From NCBI GenBank assembly GCA_026388515.1, contig JAPLJO010000063.1, forward strand, positions 1-33,600: 33,600 nucleotides of DNA, given 5' to 3'. Source of the stretch: Deltaproteobacteria bacterium. GTDB lineage: Bacteria > Desulfobacterota > Syntrophia > Syntrophales > UBA2210. Below the pieces are notes generated by a model. It was not told where the DNA came from. It worked only from the letters and a program-made list of their open reading frames with translations, and ran no database searches. A program made the translations under genes and the position numbers. Positions 4,012-16,741 of the stretch are shown one piece after another; position 1 is the stretch's first letter; the number at the start of each line of letters is the position of its first letter.

Positions 4012-4764
4012 ATGAAGAAGGGAATGATTGCAATGACTGTGGCGACCGTGTTGGTGTTCGCGGGTGTGTCGGGTTTCGCCGCCGAACCGCAGGGATGGAA
4101 ATTCGAACTCACACCCTACCTGTGGTATGCGGGAATTGAGGGCGATGTCACCGTAAAGGGGCAGAAGATCGATTTCGAAAAGTCTGCCAGCGACCTAGTC
4201 GACTATGTCGAAGCGGGGGGGTCGCTGCTCGGTGTGGTCCAGTACAACCGATTACTGTTCTGGGGACAGGTGGACTACTTCTCATTGAGCACCGACGCGT
4301 TGGACGTAGAAGACCAACCCAAAGGTGGAAGCCTGGATACGGATATGCTGCTCTGGGAGTATGCCATGGGGTATCAGATTGACGGCTTTTGGGAGGGCCA
4401 GACGATCGACCTGATGGTCGGCATACGTACGCTGCGTCAGGAGAACGATTTGAAGGTGTTCGGCAAGGGAACCATCAGTACAGACGATACTATATCGGAC
4501 CCCATTTTTGTCGTGAGGCCGAGTTTTCCGCTCTTCCCCTCAAAAATCAAGGGGCTGCGCTTCAATCCGACGCTGGCCATCGGTGGCGGCGGTGATGCCG
4601 ATCTGGTGTATGAACTATTTCCACAGTTCCAATATCAAATTACGGATAACATCGCCGCTCGTTTAGGTTATCGCACGGTCGGCTATAAGTTCTCAGATGA
4701 TAACGACAACGAGCTGAACTTCCGTATGGCCGGTCTGATTGCTGGCGTGGGCGTAATGTTTTAA
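4012..4764 (+). CDS. Outer-membrane beta-barrel protein
   Basis: 250 aa, signal peptide (MKKGMIAMTVATVLVFAGVSGFAA), WKFELTPYLWYAGIEGDVTVKG, amphipathic strands, C-terminal Phe; strong RBS AAAGGAGGT. Confidence 0.7.
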   Translation: MKKGMIAMTVATVLVFAGVSGFAAEPQGWKFELTPYLWYAGIEGDVTVKGQKIDFEKSASDLVDYVEAGGSLLGVVQYNRLLFWGQVDYFSLSTDALDVEDQPKGGSLDTDMLLWEYAMGYQIDGFWEGQTIDLMVGIRTLRQENDLKVFGKGTISTDDTISDPIFVVRPSFPLFPSKIKGLRFNPTLAIGGGGDADLVYELFPQFQYQITDNIAARLGYRTVGYKFSDDNDNELNFRMAGLIAGVGVMF

Positions 4765-4889
4765 TGAGATGGTCTCGTGGACAGAAGGGAAGTGCGACGG
4801 TTCTTCTCCCCTTTAATGTTTGGAAAAATGCAGTATATTTTCCTCTGCTGAAATGAACTGAAATAATGTATCTAAAGGAGAACAAAGTT

Positions 4890-7355
4890 ATGAGACTACG
4901 ACAGTGTACAAAACAGCAAGCGGTGAAAGGACATACTGCCGGCGCCTGGACCGCCGTGGGCTCTTTGCTGGCGTCGGGACTTATACTAAGTATCAATGCG
5001 TCAGCACAGGAGGTGCTGCCGATTCCACCGGCACCCTTCAAAGGGCAGATAGGCCTGAGTGCCAAGGACTCGAAATCCGATTTTCCAAAACCGGTAGAGG
5101 CGCCAAAGGGGGTGCCGAACATTGTTCTGATACTCCTTGACGATGTCGGATTCGGCGCGTCGAGTACGTTCGGCGGGCCCATCAGTACACCCACATTGGA
5201 TCGGTTAGCGAAGAATGGATTGCGCTATACGCAGTTTCATACGACGGCGCTCAGTTCTCCCACACGAGCAGCTTTGCTCACCGGACGCAATAATCACTCG
5301 GTTCATACCGGAGTGATCATGGAGCAGGCAACGGGCTTTCCCGGATACGACAGCCTTTTGGGTAAGGATACCGCAACTGTCGCCGAAATCCTGAAGCAGA
5401 AGGGCTGGAACACCGCCTGGTTCGGTAAGAACCACAACGTGCCGGACTGGCAGACCAGCCAGGCCGGTCCGTTCGATCTCTGGCCGACCGGGCTGGGATT
5501 TGAGAAGTTCTATGGGTTCATCGGCGCCGAGACCAATCAGTGGCGGCCGGCAGTGTTCGACGGTACGAAACCCATCGAGCCGTACCTCGGCAAGCCGGAC
5601 TACAACTTCGATTACGACATCGCCGACCAGGCCATCCAGTGGGTGCGCAACCAAAAGGCCGTCGCACCGGACAAGCCCTTCTTCCTCTACTATGCGCCGG
5701 GGGCAACCCACGCGCCGCATCATCCTAAAAAAGAATGGATCGCCAAGTACAAGAGCCAGTTCGATCAGGGCTGGGACAAGGTTCGCGAGGAAACGCTGGC
5801 GCGGCAGAAAAAGCTGGGGATCGTGCCGGCCAACACACAATTGACACCACGCTCACGGGGGATTCCTGCCTGGGATACCCTTAATGCCGAACAGAAGCAA
5901 CTCAGCGCTTACATGATGGAGATTTATGCCGGCTTCCTCGAGCAGACCGACTACAACATCGGCCGTATGCTGGATGCTATTGAGAAACTCGGCCAGCTAG
6001 ACAACACACTGGTGATCTACATCGTCGGCGACAACGGCGCCAGCGCCGAGGGCGGCGCTAACGGGACCTTCAACGAGATGGCCCACCTTAACGGCATCGA
6101 CGAAGGCTACGAGGCCATCCTCAAGCACAAGGACAGCCTGGGGAAGTGGTCCTCCAACAACCACTATCCGATGGGCTGGGCACACGCGATGGACGCGCCG
6201 TTCCAGTGGACCAAACAGATTGCCTCGCACTACGGCGGCACCCGCAACGGCATGGTCATCTCATGGCCTGCCCATATCAATGACGAGGGAGGTATCCGCC
6301 CCCAGTGGCACCACACGATTGATATCGTGCCAACCATCCTGGAGGCAACCGGTATCGAGCAACCCTCCTCCGTGAACGGCGTGGCGCAGAAACATATTGA
6401 GGGCGTCAGCATGGCATATAGCTTTGATGATCCTAAGGCGCCCTCGGCCCGCCGGACACAGTATTTCGAGATGTTCGGCAACCGGGCGATCTATCATGAC
6501 GGCTGGTTGGCCTGTACGACGCCGAAACTCGCGCCTTGGGAGGACGTCACCATGGTTCCGGCGGCGGCCACAATTGACGTGATCACTGGCTACAAGTGGG
6601 AACTCTACCACGTCGCGGAGGACTTCAGTGAGGCCGTCAACCTCGCCGAGCAGCAGCCCGACAAGCTGCATGAGATGCAGTTGCTCTTCTATGCGGAGGC
6701 CGCGAAGTACAACGTCCTACCGCTGGACGACAGCAAGGTCGCGCGGCTTGATGTGCGTATCCGACCGAGTCTGACGCGCGGACGCACCGAATTCGTATAT
6801 GAAGGAGGTGTCACGCGCATACCGGAAGCGGCGGCCCCGGACGTGAAGAACAAGTCATTCCGCATCACGGCCGAGGTGGTCGTGCCCGAAGGTGGCGGTC
6901 AAGGTGTCATCGTCACCCAAGGAGGTCTGGCCGGCGGCTGGGCGCTACTGTTCCGAGACGGCAAACCGGTGTTTCAATACAACACGTTGAACTTGGCGTA
7001 CTTTACCATAGCCGCTAAGGACGCCCTCAAACCCGGTAAACACACGATAGCCTTCGACTTCAAGTACGATGGCGGCGGGTTTGGCAAGGGCGGCAACGGG
7101 GCGCTGAGCGTAGACGGCACAACGGTGGCTGAGGGCCGCATCGCCGCCACCGTTCCATTGCGGTTCACTTTGGATGAGACCTTCGACGTGGGTGAGGATA
7201 CCGGCACACCCGTAAGCGAAGACTACGATGTACCGTTTGCGTTCACCGGCGAGATCAGGAAAGTTGTCGTTAAGCTCGGAGATTCCAAACTTGGCGCCGC
7301 CGACCAACAGAAGCTGCAGAGCAAAGAGCGCAAAGCGGCTCTTGCGGTGCAATAA
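4890..7355 (+). CDS. Secreted Ser-type sulfatase (arylsulfatase family)
   Basis: ORF 4866-7355; ATG 4890 preceded by AAAGGAG. Signal peptide; NIVLILLDDVGFG metal site; HTTALSSPTRAALLTGRN (S-x-P-T-R with Ser at the formylglycine position); VIYIVGDNGA. Confidence 0.9.
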   Translation: MRLRQCTKQQAVKGHTAGAWTAVGSLLASGLILSINASAQEVLPIPPAPFKGQIGLSAKDSKSDFPKPVEAPKGVPNIVLILLDDVGFGASSTFGGPISTPTLDRLAKNGLRYTQFHTTALSSPTRAALLTGRNNHSVHTGVIMEQATGFPGYDSLLGKDTATVAEILKQKGWNTAWFGKNHNVPDWQTSQAGPFDLWPTGLGFEKFYGFIGAETNQWRPAVFDGTKPIEPYLGKPDYNFDYDIADQAIQWVRNQKAVAPDKPFFLYYAPGATHAPHHPKKEWIAKYKSQFDQGWDKVREETLARQKKLGIVPANTQLTPRSRGIPAWDTLNAEQKQLSAYMMEIYAGFLEQTDYNIGRMLDAIEKLGQLDNTLVIYIVGDNGASAEGGANGTFNEMAHLNGIDEGYEAILKHKDSLGKWSSNNHYPMGWAHAMDAPFQWTKQIASHYGGTRNGMVISWPAHINDEGGIRPQWHHTIDIVPTILEATGIEQPSSVNGVAQKHIEGVSMAYSFDDPKAPSARRTQYFEMFGNRAIYHDGWLACTTPKLAPWEDVTMVPAAATIDVITGYKWELYHVAEDFSEAVNLAEQQPDKLHEMQLLFYAEAAKYNVLPLDDSKVARLDVRIRPSLTRGRTEFVYEGGVTRIPEAAAPDVKNKSFRITAEVVVPEGGGQGVIVTQGGLAGGWALLFRDGKPVFQYNTLNLAYFTIAAKDALKPGKHTIAFDFKYDGGGFGKGGNGALSVDGTTVAEGRIAATVPLRFTLDETFDVGEDTGTPVSEDYDVPFAFTGEIRKVVVKLGDSKLGAADQQKLQSKERKAALAVQ

Positions 7356-7362
7356 GAACCCA

Positions 7363-7392
7363 GGAAGGCGGGGCTTCCAAGGCCCGCCTTCC
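7363..7392 (+). promoter_or_regulatory. Strong intergenic RNA hairpin between sulfatase and maturase
   Basis: GGAAGGCGGG (7363-7372) pairs perfectly with CCCGCCTTCC (7383-7392), 10-nt loop; no clear U-tract follows. Confidence 0.6.
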
Positions 7393-7403
7393 AATCTCCC
7401 TAT

Positions 7404-8681
7404 ATGAACAGTACGCAAAGAAAGAGCGACTCTGCTCCGCAAGGCATCCACGTCGTGGCTAAACCCATAGGGCCACTGTGCAACCTCGAGTGCGAATATT
7501 GTTTTTACCTTGAAAAACAGGCACTCTTCGATTCCGGTGGCCAGTACCGGATGTCCGATAAAGTCCTCACCGCATTCATCACAAGCTACATCACCGCTCA
7601 GCCCACACCGGCAGTTGAATTCGTCTGGCAGGGAGGCGAGCCGACGCTTTTGGGGATCGATTTCTTCAAAAGGGTGGTTGAACTCCAGCGGCAGTTTGCG
7701 GGAGGAAAAATGATCTCCAATTCACTCCAGACGAACGGCACGCTCCTCGATGTCGAATGGTGCCGTTTTCTGAAGAAGCACAATTTCATGGTGGGGATCA
7801 GCCTGGACGGTCCGAAAGAGATTCACGACCGCTATCGCCGTGACCACCAGGGTAAGAGCACCTTTGACCGGGTGATGCATGGTCTCAACCTGCTGCAGGA
7901 ATACAAGGTTGATTATAACGTGCTGGCTTGTGTAGCCCGGGAAACGGCGGCAAGCCCTCTCGAAGTATACAGTTTTCTCAGGGATGCAGGTGTCGAGTTC
8001 ATCCAGTTCACGCCCATCGTGGAGCGCCTGCCCGATGCATGCTGCAGTCAGCTTGGTCTGAGCCTTGCGGGTCCTTCATTTCTGGGAAAAGAAGAACCAC
8101 AAACCGAGGTTACCCCCTGGACGGTGATTCCCGAGGAATACGGCGATTTTCTGATCGCCGTTTATGAAGAATGGATCCGCCATGATGTGGGCAAGGTATT
8201 TGTCATGAACTTCGAATGGGCGCTCAACGCCTGGATCGGCAATCCCTCGCCGGTCTGTATCCATGCGGAGCAATGCGGGCGATCAGTTGTGACCGAGCAC
8301 AATGGCGATGTCTATGCCTGTGACCATTGTGTCTACCCCGAGTACAGGCTCGGGAATATTTTAACCGACAATCTCCTGCAGATGGTCGGGAAATCAATAC
8401 AGTCAGGTTTCGGCATAACAAAGGAGTCGGCCTTGCCTCGCTGGTGCGGGGAATGCGAAGTCTTGGCAGCCTGCCGGGGCGGGTGTCCCAAGCATCGTTT
8501 TACAAGAACATGGGACAATGAACCGGGACTTCATTACCTCTGCGAAGGATACAAGAAGTTTTTCCTCCATATCCGGAAGTACCTGAGAGCAATGACAACC
8601 CTCCTGGAACACGGGCTGCCTGCGTCACACGTTATGAACGCAATAAATGGCCCATTATTTATAAAAGCAAGTGATAGATGA
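7404..8681 (+). CDS. Anaerobic sulfatase maturase (anSME), radical SAM/SPASM protein
   Basis: 425 aa; CNLECEYCFY (CxxxCxxC), EFVWQGGEPTLLG, C-terminal SPASM Cys cluster ACDHCVYPEYRLGN...WCGECEVLAACRGGCPKHR; directly downstream of the sulfatase. Confidence 0.92.
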   Translation: MNSTQRKSDSAPQGIHVVAKPIGPLCNLECEYCFYLEKQALFDSGGQYRMSDKVLTAFITSYITAQPTPAVEFVWQGGEPTLLGIDFFKRVVELQRQFAGGKMISNSLQTNGTLLDVEWCRFLKKHNFMVGISLDGPKEIHDRYRRDHQGKSTFDRVMHGLNLLQEYKVDYNVLACVARETAASPLEVYSFLRDAGVEFIQFTPIVERLPDACCSQLGLSLAGPSFLGKEEPQTEVTPWTVIPEEYGDFLIAVYEEWIRHDVGKVFVMNFEWALNAWIGNPSPVCIHAEQCGRSVVTEHNGDVYACDHCVYPEYRLGNILTDNLLQMVGKSIQSGFGITKESALPRWCGECEVLAACRGGCPKHRFTRTWDNEPGLHYLCEGYKKFFLHIRKYLRAMTTLLEHGLPASHVMNAINGPLFIKASDR

Positions 8682-8815: not shown

Positions 8816-10210
8816 ATGAAGATGCATCATGAGATGGCTCTATGGACATATCTTTTCCTGACTTTCATTATGACTGCCGGCTGCAGCCACTTCGGACACT
8901 ACCCAGTGAATGCGCCCTTGGACCAATATGACCCCAGCTATGGTTATCGTATCAAAAGCACGGGGAGGGAGGGCAACTCGGAAGAACTGCTCCTTATCCT
9001 TTCCTTCTCCGGTGGTGGAACCCGGGCGGCTTCCTTTTCCTACGGGGTGCTCGAAGCGCTGCGAGAAACGGAGGTTACCTTTGACGGCAGGAAGCGGAGG
9101 CTTTTGGATGAGGTGGACGTGATATCGGGTGTTTCGGGTGGAAGCTTTACGGCCGCCTATTTCGGACTTTTCGGCGAACGGATCTTCGAAGATTATGAAA
9201 GCCGGTTCCTGAAGAAAGATATCCAGGGGGATCTGACCTTTGCCCTTCTTAATCCTGTCAACTGGTTTCGGCTTTCATCGCCGTTCTTTGACCGGAGTGA
9301 CCTCGCCGCCGAGTACTATGACAAGAACGTTTTTGAAGGGAAAACTTTTAGGGACATGCTCGAGCGGAAAGGACCGATGGTTTTAATCAATGCCACAGAC
9401 ATGTCCAGGGGAATGAGGTTTGCCTTTCACCAGTTCTCATTCGATGCAATCTGCTCAGACCTCTTGCCATTTCCAGTGGCCAGGGCATGTGCGGCTTCAT
9501 CAGCGGTGCCGGGTGTGCTGACGCCGATCACGCTGAAAAATTATGCAGGCCATTGCGGCTTTATGCTTCCTTTTCAAAGCGGGACGCACCCTTCCAGTTA
9601 TCGGTTGAGGGAAATGAGAGAAAATATGATGCTCGCACTGGATTCGGACGAAAAACAATACTTTCACCTGATTGATGGTGGTGTGACGGACAACCTTGGT
9701 TTGAGGATCATCGAGGAAAGCATTGATTCGGTCGGTGATGCGTGGACATCTCTCAAGCTCGCGGGATGGGAGAAGGTCCGGAAGGTAGTCTTTATCGTCG
9801 TCAATGCTGAAACGAAAATAGAATCCCATTGGGACCGGATGGAAATCATTCCTCCCTTTGTGGCAATGCTCTCGAACTCTTCCTCCATCGCTATCACACG
9901 ATACAACCGTGAGACCATAGCACTTCTCCAGGAAAGTTTTGAACGGTGGGCTACTCAGGTACGGACGGGGAGGTGCCCGCCGGGACAGATCTCCCAGACG
10001 CACGGATCCTGCGGCGATATTGAGTACTATATGGTGGATGTTCGGTTCGAATCACTGAACGACCCCGCAGAAAGCGCCTCTCTGGCTTCATTGCCTACAT
10101 CTTTTTATCTATCTCCTGACGAAGTAGATAGGCTGAGAATTGCAGCCCGTAAAATCCTGACCGAGTCCGGTGATTTCCAAAGATTGCTGAAAGACCTTAA
10201 TGCTGAGTGA
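8816..10210 (+). CDS. Patatin-like phospholipase, predicted lipoprotein
   Basis: 464 aa; lipobox-like MTAGC; LSFSGGGTRAASFSYGVLEAL oxyanion region, GVSGGSF (GxSxG), DGGVTDN catalytic Asp motif. Confidence 0.9.
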   Translation: MKMHHEMALWTYLFLTFIMTAGCSHFGHYPVNAPLDQYDPSYGYRIKSTGREGNSEELLLILSFSGGGTRAASFSYGVLEALRETEVTFDGRKRRLLDEVDVISGVSGGSFTAAYFGLFGERIFEDYESRFLKKDIQGDLTFALLNPVNWFRLSSPFFDRSDLAAEYYDKNVFEGKTFRDMLERKGPMVLINATDMSRGMRFAFHQFSFDAICSDLLPFPVARACAASSAVPGVLTPITLKNYAGHCGFMLPFQSGTHPSSYRLREMRENMMLALDSDEKQYFHLIDGGVTDNLGLRIIEESIDSVGDAWTSLKLAGWEKVRKVVFIVVNAETKIESHWDRMEIIPPFVAMLSNSSSIAITRYNRETIALLQESFERWATQVRTGRCPPGQISQTHGSCGDIEYYMVDVRFESLNDPAESASLASLPTSFYLSPDEVDRLRIAARKILTESGDFQRLLKDLNAE

Positions 10211-10323
10211 GAGGAGTGGCGAATCTTTCCTTCCGTCACAATTTGGCTCGAGCAAATATGACATATGACTCATTTGATAAAAATTAAGAGGGATAAGAAC
10301 CTGGTACAAAATGGAGATTAATA

Positions 10324-11664
10324 ATGAAGTTACTGGGTCGTGCTTTGACCTTATCATCATGTTGGCGAGTTATTGAGGCCCTGGCAGTATCCTTGGTACT
10401 GCTATTCTTCATTCTCAGCAGTCTTCCCGCTTACGGACAGAGCGTTCTCGTCAGAAAAGATAGGGAATTTGAACCGAAGACACTAAGCCTTCCGTATGCC
10501 TTCTACAATAAGTCGTTTGGAGTAGCGGCAGGCTACGTTCATGGATATGCCGGATATCCCCAGAAACAAATGACTCTTCTTGCCACACTCATCGCCGGCA
10601 CGAATGATGCGCTGGCGTTTTATGTGATGACCAGGGATATTCAATCTCCCCTTGAGCGGATTTTTCTGGACGCCGATTTGGCACTGAGTACCTTCGGTAC
10701 CAATAACAGTTATGCGAACGGGAACCCCGCATTCGCTCATGAGCGGGCGGGAAGCAACGATTCTGACAAGGACAATTATATCGAAGGCCGTGGAATGGAT
10801 AACATTGCGCGCGTCAAATTCCGATACCTGCTCCCTATCGGCAGCGGCGAGAATGAGGTGATCACCACACAGGTTATTGACAGAGGCCAGTTAATTGAGG
10901 GGGCGGTCGGGGGAGATTCATGGAATCCCTTTGAGAGTGGGAGGACGTACTTTGAAATGCGGCCTTTCTGGCGTCAGCAGACAATCAACACTGATGACAA
11001 TGAAGTGAATCGAAGAACAAACGGGGTCGATATCTCCCTCTATTGGGAGAATACTGACTTGCCCAAGAATCCGTCACATGGCAATACTGTCCGCACCCGG
11101 TATACTGAAGACTGCGGGTGGTTCGACAGCTCAAATCCATACAATGTGGCTGATATTGAATACAGCCAGTATTTTTCTTTCGGGGAATCAGAACACTTCA
11201 GGCAGCAGGTACTTGCCTTTGATTTCTGGACGGTGAACGCCATATCCTGGAATCGAAGTGATGTCGAGGATGGTAAGATTGTATACCGCAGGCCGCCGTC
11301 GTATGCCGGGGCGGCACTTGGCGGTCTCTGGCGGCTTCGAGGCTATCCTTTAAATCGATTCAATGACCGCGCCGCGATTTATTACGCCGTTGAATACAGA
11401 ATGACCCCGGAATGGAATCCCTTTGCAGATATCGAATGGCTCCAAAAGTATTTTGAGGTTGCATGGTGGCAGGTTGTTCCATTCTTCGAAGTCGGCAGGG
11501 TTGCATCGAGCTGGGAGCTCAATACTCTTCACTCAAGTATGAAATGGGATGTGGGAGTAGGTATGCGGGCAATGGCCAAAGGCCTGGTGGTGCGTGTTGA
11601 TATGGCAGTATCTGAAGAAGACTGCGGAGTCCAGATGATGGTGGGACATCCATTCCAGTTTTAA
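10324..11664 (+). CDS. Omp85/surface antigen D15-type outer-membrane barrel without visible POTRA domains
   Basis: 446 aa; signal sequence; GLWRLRGYPLNRFNDRAAIYYAVEYR matches the Omp85 L6 (V/L)RG(F/Y) motif; C-terminal Phe (MMVGHPFQF); too short for POTRA plus a 16-strand barrel. Confidence 0.78.
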   Translation: MKLLGRALTLSSCWRVIEALAVSLVLLFFILSSLPAYGQSVLVRKDREFEPKTLSLPYAFYNKSFGVAAGYVHGYAGYPQKQMTLLATLIAGTNDALAFYVMTRDIQSPLERIFLDADLALSTFGTNNSYANGNPAFAHERAGSNDSDKDNYIEGRGMDNIARVKFRYLLPIGSGENEVITTQVIDRGQLIEGAVGGDSWNPFESGRTYFEMRPFWRQQTINTDDNEVNRRTNGVDISLYWENTDLPKNPSHGNTVRTRYTEDCGWFDSSNPYNVADIEYSQYFSFGESEHFRQQVLAFDFWTVNAISWNRSDVEDGKIVYRRPPSYAGAALGGLWRLRGYPLNRFNDRAAIYYAVEYRMTPEWNPFADIEWLQKYFEVAWWQVVPFFEVGRVASSWELNTLHSSMKWDVGVGMRAMAKGLVVRVDMAVSEEDCGVQMMVGHPFQF

Positions 11665-11726: not shown

Positions 11727-12494
11727 ATGAATCCAACTATTGCCGGCATTATCGTGTTTGCATGTACATTTGGGGGAGCACTGTTTGGTATGTGGTTGAA
11801 TACCGTATTGCCGGAGCACCACCTTGACGAGGAGTCGAGAGACACGGTGAAGCTTGGTTTTGGGCTCATCGCCACCATGACCGCGCTTGTTCTCGGCCTT
11901 GTCACTGCCTCCGCTAAGAGTTCCTTTGATGCGGTGAACATCGCTGTGAAACAAACCGCCGTTGAAATCCTCTCTCTCGACCGCGTACTTGCGCGCTATG
12001 GGCCCGAGACCGGCGAGATTCGCAAGGACTTAAAGCACGGGATTGGGGCAAGGATCGACGTGATTTGGCCCCAGGACTCATCCAGCCCCGCCGGTCTGGA
12101 TCTCATGCGCTCGGGAGCAGGAGTGGAAGCAGAGGGACTCCCCGCTGCAATCCGCGCTCTAAAGCCTCGCGACGACTCCCAGCGGGCGCTCCAGTTGCGT
12201 GCGATGGATCTTGCCGAAACACTGTTGCAAGCCAGGTGGCTCTTGCTTGCCGGCACCGAGATGTCGGTTCCCATGCCGTTCCTCGTGACACTTCTTTTCT
12301 GGCTTGCGATCACGTTCACGAGCTTTGGATTGTTTGCTCCGCGGCACGCCACAGTGATCGCGGTCCTCTTCGTTTGTGCGCTATCCGTCGGTAGTGCCAT
12401 GTTTCTCATATTAGAAATGGATGGGTCGTTTGAGGGTATGATTAGGGTTTCCGCAGATCCTCTCCGCTTCGCATATGCGCATCTCAATATGTAG
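11727..12494 (+). CDS. Bestrophin-like/DUF4239 membrane protein
   Basis: 255 aa; N- and C-terminal TM pairs; LNTVLPEHHLDEESRDTVKLGFGLIATMTALVLGLVTASAKSSFD is characteristic of this family. Confidence 0.7.
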   Translation: MNPTIAGIIVFACTFGGALFGMWLNTVLPEHHLDEESRDTVKLGFGLIATMTALVLGLVTASAKSSFDAVNIAVKQTAVEILSLDRVLARYGPETGEIRKDLKHGIGARIDVIWPQDSSSPAGLDLMRSGAGVEAEGLPAAIRALKPRDDSQRALQLRAMDLAETLLQARWLLLAGTEMSVPMPFLVTLLFWLAITFTSFGLFAPRHATVIAVLFVCALSVGSAMFLILEMDGSFEGMIRVSADPLRFAYAHLNM

Positions 12495-12790: not shown

Positions 12791-14143
12791 ATGAAGCCAC
12801 ATCGTTTCAAAGTTTTTGTTATAACGGCGGTACTGCTGTTTCAATTTGGCATGTTATTACCTCAAAGTGCGCTTGCGTGGACTGAACATCCGCTTATTTC
12901 ATATCAGGTACTTCGGGTTATTCCTGAAGTTCGGGATGCGAAAACCGTGAACGTGGAAGATCTTGATACATTCCTCATGGAAAAGGAGGGCGGTCTCGCA
13001 ACACTTCTGGCAGCAGAAGAAGAATGGGCGCGGCAGAATCTCGCATACTACAGACCCCTGCCCGAAGTATTGACATTCAAGGCCACGGGCACTCCGGCGG
13101 ATATCAGGGAGCGTTTTTGCCATGCCATCAGGATCAATCCCGATAGCAGGTTTGGCCTTTACCTCCAGATCGTTCCCGGGACCGATTCCGGAGGAAGGCC
13201 GCGTATTACGCCGGATGCCGTCACCTTTCTTAAGAACACCTCTGACTGGAAATCGACCACGTTTGTGGAGCTAAAGGCAGGAGAGATGGTATCCCCCCTT
13301 GATGTCATGACAACCGCCAGCGACGAGCCTGATTTTGGTCTGGATATTGGCTTGTATGATGACAACAGCACCGAGTTTGGCACGATCTATGGCTTCGGAA
13401 AACAACCGTTCGGAAACCCTAACCTTGAATACAGCAGCCAGGGGCCATTCCACATGGGATACTACCATGAATCATGGTTTGTCAGCACCTTTGCCGATTT
13501 TGTGAATCAGACCTACCCGGAATACCGGATACACCTCTATAAAACATTGTCCACATATGCTTTCCGGACGGGTCACGACTACTGGGGATGGCGTTTCATG
13601 GGTATAGGCCTGCATTACATCATGGATCTTACCCAACCGTATCATACCACTCTGCTGCCCGGCGTGAGGGATATCGTGTTACGCTGGATCAACTACTTTG
13701 ATATCATTGGCATTGGGGATCCCAAGGCTGATGCCATCCAGCTTGTATCCAACCGGCACACGGCCATTGAAAAATTTCAGCAGGCGGTCCTGCAGGAGGC
13801 GTATCAAGCGAACAAACCGGATCACCCGCTCCTTGTCACCCTCAGGACCATCAATGTCTGCCCTGCATGGGATGACAGTTTACCACGGGACTTGATTTCA
13901 GAGCGGAGCCATGCCATTGCCGGCAAGATGGATGAGATCATGGAAGAAACCATGCCTGAAAGCTGGGTTTCTGACCCCACCTTTGAGCTGGGAACGAGCC
14001 CTGAGCTGGACGATATAATGGTCAGGATAAAGCAGAATGGCGGAGAGCAGGCTATAGATCGTGTTACAATGATTTTGAAAGAGATACTTGAACCTTTATC
14101 TGGTTATATGTGTTCATATATCTATAGCATCATGGTGAAATAA
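12791..14143 (+). CDS. Secreted zinc-dependent phospholipase C / S1-P1 nuclease-fold protein
   Basis: 450 aa; signal peptide ending SALA followed by WTEHPLISYQVL; H-x3-D-x5-H zinc motif in GIGLHYIMDLTQPYHTT; TGHDYWGWRFMG. Confidence 0.7.
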   Translation: MKPHRFKVFVITAVLLFQFGMLLPQSALAWTEHPLISYQVLRVIPEVRDAKTVNVEDLDTFLMEKEGGLATLLAAEEEWARQNLAYYRPLPEVLTFKATGTPADIRERFCHAIRINPDSRFGLYLQIVPGTDSGGRPRITPDAVTFLKNTSDWKSTTFVELKAGEMVSPLDVMTTASDEPDFGLDIGLYDDNSTEFGTIYGFGKQPFGNPNLEYSSQGPFHMGYYHESWFVSTFADFVNQTYPEYRIHLYKTLSTYAFRTGHDYWGWRFMGIGLHYIMDLTQPYHTTLLPGVRDIVLRWINYFDIIGIGDPKADAIQLVSNRHTAIEKFQQAVLQEAYQANKPDHPLLVTLRTINVCPAWDDSLPRDLISERSHAIAGKMDEIMEETMPESWVSDPTFELGTSPELDDIMVRIKQNGGEQAIDRVTMILKEILEPLSGYMCSYIYSIMVK

Positions 14144-14258: not shown

Positions 14259-15308
14259 TTACGGTTTGAAAGTCTTTATAAGTGACGAGGCAATCTTAAA
14301 CAGTTCATCCTGATACATGGGAGACAGGGGGAAGAGATGCCCCCTCTCATCATAGAGATGCAATGTCGCATCGGGGATCGTATCAGCCAGATGTTCTGCA
14401 AACTGCCAGGGAACAAATGTATCCTGTTTTCCCTGAAAGATGTGAACCGGGACTTTTATCTCTTCAAGCTTAAATTCCCAGGGCGCCCATTGCGTTTGAA
14501 GATCCTGAATTGTACCTCTTGCCCCGCCTACTAACGCCTCCTGCTGATCATGCGAAAAAAGGTCGGCAATAGATTGGTTTTTCAATATCTCGCGGTCAGC
14601 AGCACACATCTTGTCTTCTGATATTTTTGAATAGTATTCTGGCAAAAATAAATCAATCCTGCGCAAATTCCTGATTATGATTTTAAACAGAATTGGTGTT
14701 TCCTCAGATAGACTGGGACCGTACAGGCCATACTCCTCCATAAGCTTGCGGGCATCATTGTATTCCCCAAAGTTTGTATAACCAGAGATGGAAAATACGA
14801 ACCTGACTCTCTCCGGCATGTAATAGGCGGCGGCAAGAACTGGCGGACCGCCGCTGGACCACCCCATCAACCCGAAATACTGAATCCCCTTCTCATCAGC
14901 AAATCTCTTAAGGTCTTGTGCAAATGCCAGTAGGGGATATCCCTCCACATAATCCGATTTCCCGATACCCGGTCTCTCAAATACAATCAGTCGTATGCCG
15001 TATTCCCTGGCTTTTTCTTCCATGAACAAAATTTCTAAACGGGATCCCGGATTCCCGTGTGCATAAAAAACCGGAAATCCCTCAAGATCGCCGCATTCCA
15101 GCCAGGACACCTTACGATCATTCTCCCATATACAATAATTCGGCGCTCCTTTATCGATGACAGTTTTAGTATCTTCTCTCTCACTGTTTAATGTTGTGCA
15201 GCCGGTTGATAGAAGCAATAAAACAACAACGAATACTTTCACATAACGCTGGCCTGACATTTTTCTCATTCCCCCATGAAGCAGATAGTGATCACTTATT
15301 GATCGCAT
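14259..15308 (-). CDS. Alpha/beta hydrolase, predicted lipoprotein
   Basis: 349 aa (start possibly 15269 or 15260); VVVLLLLSTGCTTLNSE lipobox; FYAHGNPGSRLE, GWSSGGPPVLAAAY nucleophile elbow, DERGHLFPL catalytic His. Confidence 0.85.
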   Translation of the reverse strand: MRSISDHYLLHGGMRKMSGQRYVKVFVVVLLLLSTGCTTLNSEREDTKTVIDKGAPNYCIWENDRKVSWLECGDLEGFPVFYAHGNPGSRLEILFMEEKAREYGIRLIVFERPGIGKSDYVEGYPLLAFAQDLKRFADEKGIQYFGLMGWSSGGPPVLAAAYYMPERVRFVFSISGYTNFGEYNDARKLMEEYGLYGPSLSEETPILFKIIIRNLRRIDLFLPEYYSKISEDKMCAADREILKNQSIADLFSHDQQEALVGGARGTIQDLQTQWAPWEFKLEEIKVPVHIFQGKQDTFVPWQFAEHLADTIPDATLHLYDERGHLFPLSPMYQDELFKIASSLIKTFKP

Positions 15309-16643: not shown

Positions 16644-16741
16644 TGGCGGAAGTGCATGGGAATCGAACCCACCCGAGAGGGTGTTAGCCCCTCACACCGG
16701 ATTTGAAGTCCGGGAGGCCCACCAGTGACCTAGGCACTTCC
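16644..16741 (-). tRNA. selC: tRNA-Sec (selenocysteine), anticodon UCA, CCA encoded
   Basis: 98-nt GGAAGTGCCTAGGTCACTGGTGGGCCTCCCGGACTTCAAATCCGG...GGGTTCGATTCCCATGCACTTCCGCCA; 8-bp acceptor GGAAGTGC/GCACTTCC, long variable arm, discriminator G. Confidence 0.96.

What the first reader, a model, noticed from the sequence alone, without database searches (positions are those of the whole stretch)
8816..11664. Patatin lipoprotein plus separate POTRA-less Omp85 barrel: a possible split type-Vd-like pair
A patatin-like phospholipase with a lipobox is followed 113 bp later by a barrel with the Omp85 L6 signature (LRGYPLNRF...EYR) and a terminal Phe but no room for POTRA domains. In type Vd autotransporters (PlpD) patatin, one POTRA and an Omp85-like barrel are one polypeptide. 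Here the passenger and barrel are separate genes, and the passenger carries its own lipoprotein signal. The barrel may surface-display or export the lipase, or the pair may act in outer-membrane lipid turnover.
Basis: partly seen in the sequence, partly recalled or inferred. Interest (0 to 1): 0.62.

Follow-up and report, generated by a model that had tools for sequence, protein, structure and literature searches.

The report
Lipoprotein patatin beside POTRA-less Omp85 barrel
A lipid-cutting enzyme anchored in the bacterial outer membrane is encoded next to a bare Omp85-type barrel; both are real, but they belong to known families that mostly live apart, so this is probably not a split autotransporter, only a possible two-gene version of a lipid-turnover device.

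Summary
8816-10210 encodes a lipoprotein patatin with an intact catalytic dyad; 113 bp downstream, 10324-11664 encodes an Omp85 barrel with a signal peptide, about 13 residues, and then the barrel: no POTRA (AlphaFold2 pLDDT 90.9; Foldseek: SAM50/TamA/BamA).

The 'split type Vd' reading is not supported. The barrel belongs to a broad POTRA-less Omp85 group (at least 208 relatives), most likely the 'noNterm' class named in 2014. Only a few relatives lie beside a patatin; most lie beside unrelated envelope genes. The window barrel's nearest relatives have no patatin. The patatin's own relatives (up to 61% identical) were never found next to this barrel, and among 394 other genomes of the phylum none has both.

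Something remains. Elsewhere an unrelated lipoprotein patatin (21% identical) sits upstream of the same barrel in three related genomes, and one locus holds a true type Vd fusion, a phospholipase D and this barrel in a row: 2 independent events against 0.10 expected.

The type Vd premise has also changed: PlpD's patatin domain is now placed in the periplasm, in outer-membrane lipid homeostasis. Best reading: two separate periplasm-facing outer-membrane proteins with at most a shared lipid theme. A two-gene PlpD-like module is possible but unproven.

The parts
8816..10210 (+). Patatin-like phospholipase, 464 aa, with lipoprotein signal
   Evidence: PF01734 E 7.7e-20; family conserved in about 20 relatives at 36-61% identity
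8882..8884 (+). Lipobox cysteine, Cys23 (...FIMTAG|C-S); +2 residue is Ser, so no Asp inner-membrane retention signal by the E. coli rule
   Evidence: Read from sequence; Cys conserved in at least 90% of 20 aligned sequences
9008..9025 (+). SGGGTR oxyanion-hole motif of the patatin
   Evidence: At least 90% conserved in the family
9134..9136 (+). Predicted catalytic Ser107 in GVSGGS
   Evidence: At least 90% conserved; Ser-Asp dyad is the patatin mechanism (PMC11116518)
9674..9676 (+). Predicted catalytic Asp287 in DGG
   Evidence: At least 90% conserved
10324..11664 (+). POTRA-less Omp85 barrel, 446 aa
   Evidence: NCBIfam Omp85_fam 2.1e-21; AF2 pLDDT 90.9; Foldseek to SAM50/TamA/BamA E 1e-11 to 1e-8
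10324..10440 (+). Signal peptide of the barrel, about residues 1-39 (...LPAYGQS); cleavage point read by eye
   Evidence: Helix 3-31 in the model; inference from sequence
11335..11400 (+). Loop-6 motif LRGYPLNRF ... EYR (residues 338-359)
   Evidence: Invariant or nearly invariant R339, R345, F346, D348, E357, R359 in 64 sequences
10211..10323 (.). 113-nt spacer; no terminator-like site found between the two genes
   Evidence: Consensus scan; inverted repeats only as short palindromes

Best explanation
These are two separate outer-membrane proteins, not the halves of an autotransporter. The patatin is a free-standing lipoprotein phospholipase: exported by Sec, lipidated at Cys23 and, by the E. 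coli +2 rule, carried to the inner leaflet of the outer membrane, where it would cut phospholipids on the periplasmic face. The barrel is a POTRA-less ('noNterm') Omp85 protein, inserted by BAM, that most likely disturbs or thins the membrane beside its first and last strands, as BamA and TamA do, and so handles lipids or lipoproteins. The two genes may be co-transcribed and may share an outer-membrane lipid theme, but neither needs the other. Shown here: gene identity, intact catalytic motifs, lack of POTRA, lack of co-occurrence, varied neighbours. Inferred: localisation, lipid substrate, co-transcription, the barrel's activity.
For: Patatin relatives at 36-61% identity keep lipobox and dyad but have no such barrel next door (18 loci), and the annotated plasmid relatives examined sit beside RND pumps and other genes. 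Across 394 genomes the two families overlap in none. The barrel's nearest kin (L054, L055, L056, L084, L057) have other neighbours. Over 80 loci the barrel keeps changing company: MscS (L056, L073), a MacB/Lol-type ABC exporter (L107, L114, L121, L132), DUF2860 OMP (L059, L068, L099), a lytic transglycosylase (L057), a DUF900 hydrolase (L003). 'noNterm' Omp85 barrels are an established class (PMC4104836).
Against: Patatins near the barrel are commoner than chance: two independent same-strand events within 1.6 kb in 50 genomes against 0.10 expected, P about 0.005. These are an unrelated lipoprotein patatin 72 bp upstream in L061 and L063 (its 3' part 29 bp upstream in L072), and a type Vd fusion plus phospholipase D in L099. 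This points to some functional coupling, at least in those lineages.
Confidence: 0.55

Rival explanations
1. A two-gene functional equivalent of PlpD. The patatin's lipid anchor replaces the covalent POTRA tether and keeps the enzyme at the inner leaflet beside the barrel. The barrel creates a thinned or curved zone from which the patatin takes phospholipids, for outer-membrane lipid homeostasis.
For: Two unrelated lipoprotein patatins (21% identical over the local match) stand immediately upstream of the same barrel family in separate clades; well-supported branches force two origins. L099 holds a true type Vd fusion, a PLD and this barrel in a row. PlpD's patatin domain is in the periplasm and plpD loss raises membrane lipids (PMC11116518).
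Against: At most 7 of 81 loci have any patatin within about 6 kb; sister barrels of the window lack it; no genome-level co-occurrence. No interface could be predicted.
Confidence: 0.25
2. Split type Vd / two-partner system in which the barrel translocates or displays the patatin on the cell surface.
For: Adjacency and superficial likeness to PlpD.
Against: No POTRA to recruit a client; the patatin carries its own lipoprotein route; its relatives do without the barrel; the type Vd model of surface release is itself now disputed, with the PlpD patatin domain placed in the periplasm (PMC11116518). The genome has an ordinary FhaC-type two-partner barrel with POTRA_2 and its large exoprotein elsewhere, and no fused type Vd protein was found.
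Confidence: 0.08
3. The barrel's real partner is another neighbour, for example the bestrophin-like protein 62 bp downstream (11727-12494), with the patatin a bystander.
For: Barrel relatives lie beside ion channels or transporters: MscS in L056 and L073, FtsX/MacB exporters in L107, L114, L121, L132.
Against: No single partner family recurs in more than a few loci; the downstream gene was not tested for conservation.
Confidence: 0.12

Closest known systems
noNterm Omp85 subfamily (Heinz and Lithgow 2014, PMC4104836)
   Same: Omp85 barrel with signal peptide and no POTRA or other N-terminal domain; scattered over many phyla
   Different: Membership in their actual sequence cluster was not tested; no function is known for the class, so nothing can be transferred
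PlpD / FplA, type Vd patatin-like Omp85 proteins
   Same: A patatin and an Omp85 barrel; outer-membrane lipid role plausible
   Different: Two genes instead of one polypeptide, no POTRA, patatin held by its own lipid anchor; no barrel-profile match to the PlpD-type barrel of L099 (hhalign probability 1%)
Free-standing patatin lipoproteins (family of P0001, on chromosomes and plasmids)
   Same: Lipobox, SGGGTR, GxSGGS, DGG; 36-61% identity
   Different: Relatives are not next to this barrel
Borrelia BBJ25 cluster (PMC13078400)
   Same: POTRA-less Omp85 barrel; in Desulfobulbaceae loci (L107, L114, L121, L132) the window barrel's relatives also stand beside a MacB/LolE-type ABC exporter
   Different: Sequence kinship between BBJ25 and this family was not tested; the window has no such transporter beside the barrel
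Type Vb two-partner secretion (FhaC)
   Same: Separate genes for an Omp85/TpsB-superfamily barrel and an exported partner
   Different: No POTRA_2 domain; the partner is a lipoprotein, not a TPS-domain exoprotein

Membership tests
Type Vd autotransporter (PlpD type) | Patatin, POTRA and Omp85 barrel in one polypeptide | tested here: not met
   Two ORFs with stop codons and a 113-nt gap
Type Vd autotransporter (PlpD type) | At least one POTRA domain | tested here: not met
   No POTRA match in either protein; model shows the barrel starting at residue 52; the L099 type Vd control does show POTRA, E 0.0011
Type Vd autotransporter (PlpD type) | Active patatin dyad | tested here: met
   Ser107 and Asp287 motifs conserved; activity itself not tested
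Type Vd autotransporter (PlpD type) | Barrel homologous to PlpD-type barrels | tested here: inconclusive
   Same superfamily by Pfam, but profile comparison with the L099 PlpD-like barrel gives probability 1%, and only 50% with BamA
noNterm Omp85 subfamily | Omp85-type barrel fold | tested here: met
noNterm Omp85 subfamily | No N-terminal domain before the barrel | tested here: met
   Window protein; Pfam finds only Omp85 in the 64 members scanned
noNterm Omp85 subfamily | Falls in the published noNterm sequence cluster | not tested
Type Vb two-partner secretion | POTRA_2 plus ShlB/FhaC-type barrel, partner with TPS domain | tested here: not met
   Absent in P0002; present in the same genome's L183 as a positive control
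Free-standing patatin lipoprotein | Lipobox, catalytic dyad, no fused barrel | tested here: met

The most novel reading that the evidence does not exclude
Lipoprotein phospholipases have been recruited more than once to a POTRA-less Omp85 barrel, giving a two-gene counterpart of PlpD in which a lipid anchor does the work of the POTRA tether, for phospholipid turnover at the inner leaflet of the outer membrane.
Probability: 0.22. Interest if true: 0.65.

Novelty: new member of a known kind. Interest (0 to 1): 0.33.

Why it matters
noNterm Omp85 barrels have no assigned function. Their neighbours (lipoprotein lipases, a phospholipase D with a type Vd fusion, MacB/Lol-type exporters, lipoproteins) give a testable hint that Omp85 barrels without POTRA act on outer-membrane lipids or lipoproteins rather than on protein folding. 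The pair itself would matter only if physical coupling were shown.

Tried and rejected
Single-protein search of genome contigs with the barrel gave nothing; the profile search worked. Structure of the patatin without an alignment was useless (pLDDT 32), so a hidden POTRA in its C-terminal part is excluded only by profile. PDB sequence searches gave no real match for either protein. The 735-aa and 750-aa patatins of the same genome were checked as possible type Vd fusions and rejected: by eye they are cyclic-nucleotide-binding-type patatins, without a barrel. Promoter-like sites were below shuffle level; terminator-like sites exceeded it but none lies between the two genes. Failed calls by input error: 41, 49, 83.

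Full report
Observation. P0001 (8816-10210, 464 aa) is a patatin (PF01734, E 7.7e-20). P0002 (10324-11664, 446 aa) is an Omp85 barrel: weak on its own in Pfam (E 9e-4), but 60 of 64 relatives match PF01103 and all 64 match NCBIfam Omp85_fam.

No POTRA. AlphaFold2 on a 64-sequence alignment gave mean pLDDT 90.9 and pTM 0.84. It shows a signal helix (3-31), a short low-confidence linker, then strands from residue 52 to the C-terminus, with the loop-6 region before the strand that ends in EYR. I count 16 to 17 long strands and did not resolve the exact number. Foldseek's best PDB hits are SAM50, TamA and BamA (E 1e-11 to 1e-8), with modest TM-scores of about 0.42-0.50. POTRA is absent by profile from both proteins, while the same search finds it in the genome's BamA and TpsB and in the L099 fusion.

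The patatin family. In 395 sampled genomes of the phylum, 40 have a match; 21 of them, apart from the window's own, have a strong one (E below 1e-40), mostly full length at 36-61% identity. Eighteen of these loci were read out: in the alignment SGGGTR, the Ser motif, DGG and the lipobox cysteine are each at least about 90% conserved, and none has this barrel near it. On plasmids, relatives are common (127 records), and the annotated ones examined lie beside RND pumps, plasmid functions or metabolism. So the enzyme is a free-standing lipoprotein.

The barrel family. A profile scan found 208 related stretches in named genomes; the best 80 were kept. They come from Thermodesulfobacteriota, Nitrospirota, Acidobacteriota, Verrucomicrobiota, Pseudomonadota, Myxococcota, Bdellovibrionota and Bacteroidota (titles and tree). 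The closest relatives of the window barrel (L054, L055, L056, L084, L057/L058) have no patatin beside them. In the phylum sample, 14 genomes hold the barrel (E below 1e-18) and 21 hold the patatin family; none holds both except the window's own (0.75 expected, so absence is not itself significant, but an obligate pair would overlap heavily).

Where patatins do recur. L061 and L063 have a lipoprotein patatin 72 bp upstream on the same strand, and L072, whose contig ends inside the gene, has its 3' part 29 bp upstream. This patatin (PF01734 E 1.8e-28, lipobox LTSC) is only 21% identical to P0001 in the local match. The barrel tree separates the window from this clade, so adjacency arose at least twice. 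L099 has, in a row, a fused patatin-POTRA-Omp85 protein, a phospholipase D and this barrel. Two Holophagaceae loci have a patatin about 4 kb away. In the first 50 genomes 130 patatin places were found. The expected number within 1.6 kb of the barrel is 0.10, and two independent events were seen (P about 0.005). The window itself is left out of this count because it suggested the hypothesis. The numbers are small; I take this as a hint.

Other company. Barrel relatives are also next to mechanosensitive channels (L056, L073), a DUF2860 outer-membrane protein (L059, L068, L099), DUF4136 and DUF3313 lipoproteins, a lytic transglycosylase lipoprotein (L057), a DUF900 alpha/beta-hydrolase lipoprotein (L003) and, in Desulfobulbaceae and relatives, FtsX permease, ATPase and a 1489-aa MacB/FtsX protein. 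[quoted passage not shown]

Mechanism. For PlpD the patatin domain is now reported in the periplasm, with changed membrane lipids on deletion and a proposed role in outer-membrane lipid homeostasis (PMC11116518). A lipoprotein patatin facing the periplasm next to an Omp85 barrel would fit that newer model better than surface display. It remains inference: there is no interface, expression or activity evidence here. I therefore favour separate envelope proteins with at most a shared theme (0.55) over a two-gene PlpD-like module (0.25).

Known or new. 'noNterm' Omp85 proteins were described in 2014 with no known function (PMC4104836). I found no paper on a lipoprotein patatin paired with such a barrel in the open-access library searched; that library is incomplete. 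Interest is moderate to low for the pair, somewhat higher for the question it raises about what POTRA-less Omp85 barrels do.

Noticed in passing
L107:5983-13314; L114; L121; L132:6001-8036: POTRA-less Omp85 barrel directly upstream of FtsX permease (PF02687), ABC ATPase (PF00005) and a 1489-aa MacB/FtsX protein with an M28 peptidase match (L107): a possible Lol/MacB-like export system like Borrelia BBJ25-27.
   Followed up: partly
L099:2013-8501: Fused type Vd patatin-POTRA-Omp85 protein, phospholipase D, POTRA-less Omp85 barrel and DUF2860 outer-membrane protein in one row.
   Followed up: partly
window 4866-8681: Signal-peptide-bearing arylsulfatase followed by anaerobic sulfatase maturase (TIGR03942, E 2.4e-150), directly upstream of the patatin.
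   Followed up: no
window 11727-12494: Bestrophin-like domain protein (PF14023) 62 bp downstream of the barrel, same strand.
   Followed up: no
window 12791-14143: 450-aa secreted protein with no Pfam or NCBIfam match; by eye reminiscent of zinc-dependent phospholipase C / S1-P1 nuclease sequences.
   Followed up: no
window 14259-15308 (-): Alpha/beta hydrolase (PF00561) with a lipobox (STGC): a second lipoprotein hydrolase near the pair.
   Followed up: no
window 16644-16741 (-): tRNA-Sec gene.
   Followed up: no
window 4012-4764; L079, L084, L099, L105, L126, L131: A family of about 250-aa outer-membrane barrel proteins recurs within about 6 kb of this Omp85 barrel in seven loci.
   Followed up: no
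L183 (G000 contig C66): Complete-looking FhaC-type two-partner locus (POTRA_2 barrel plus haemagglutinin-like exoprotein) in the window's own genome.
   Followed up: no
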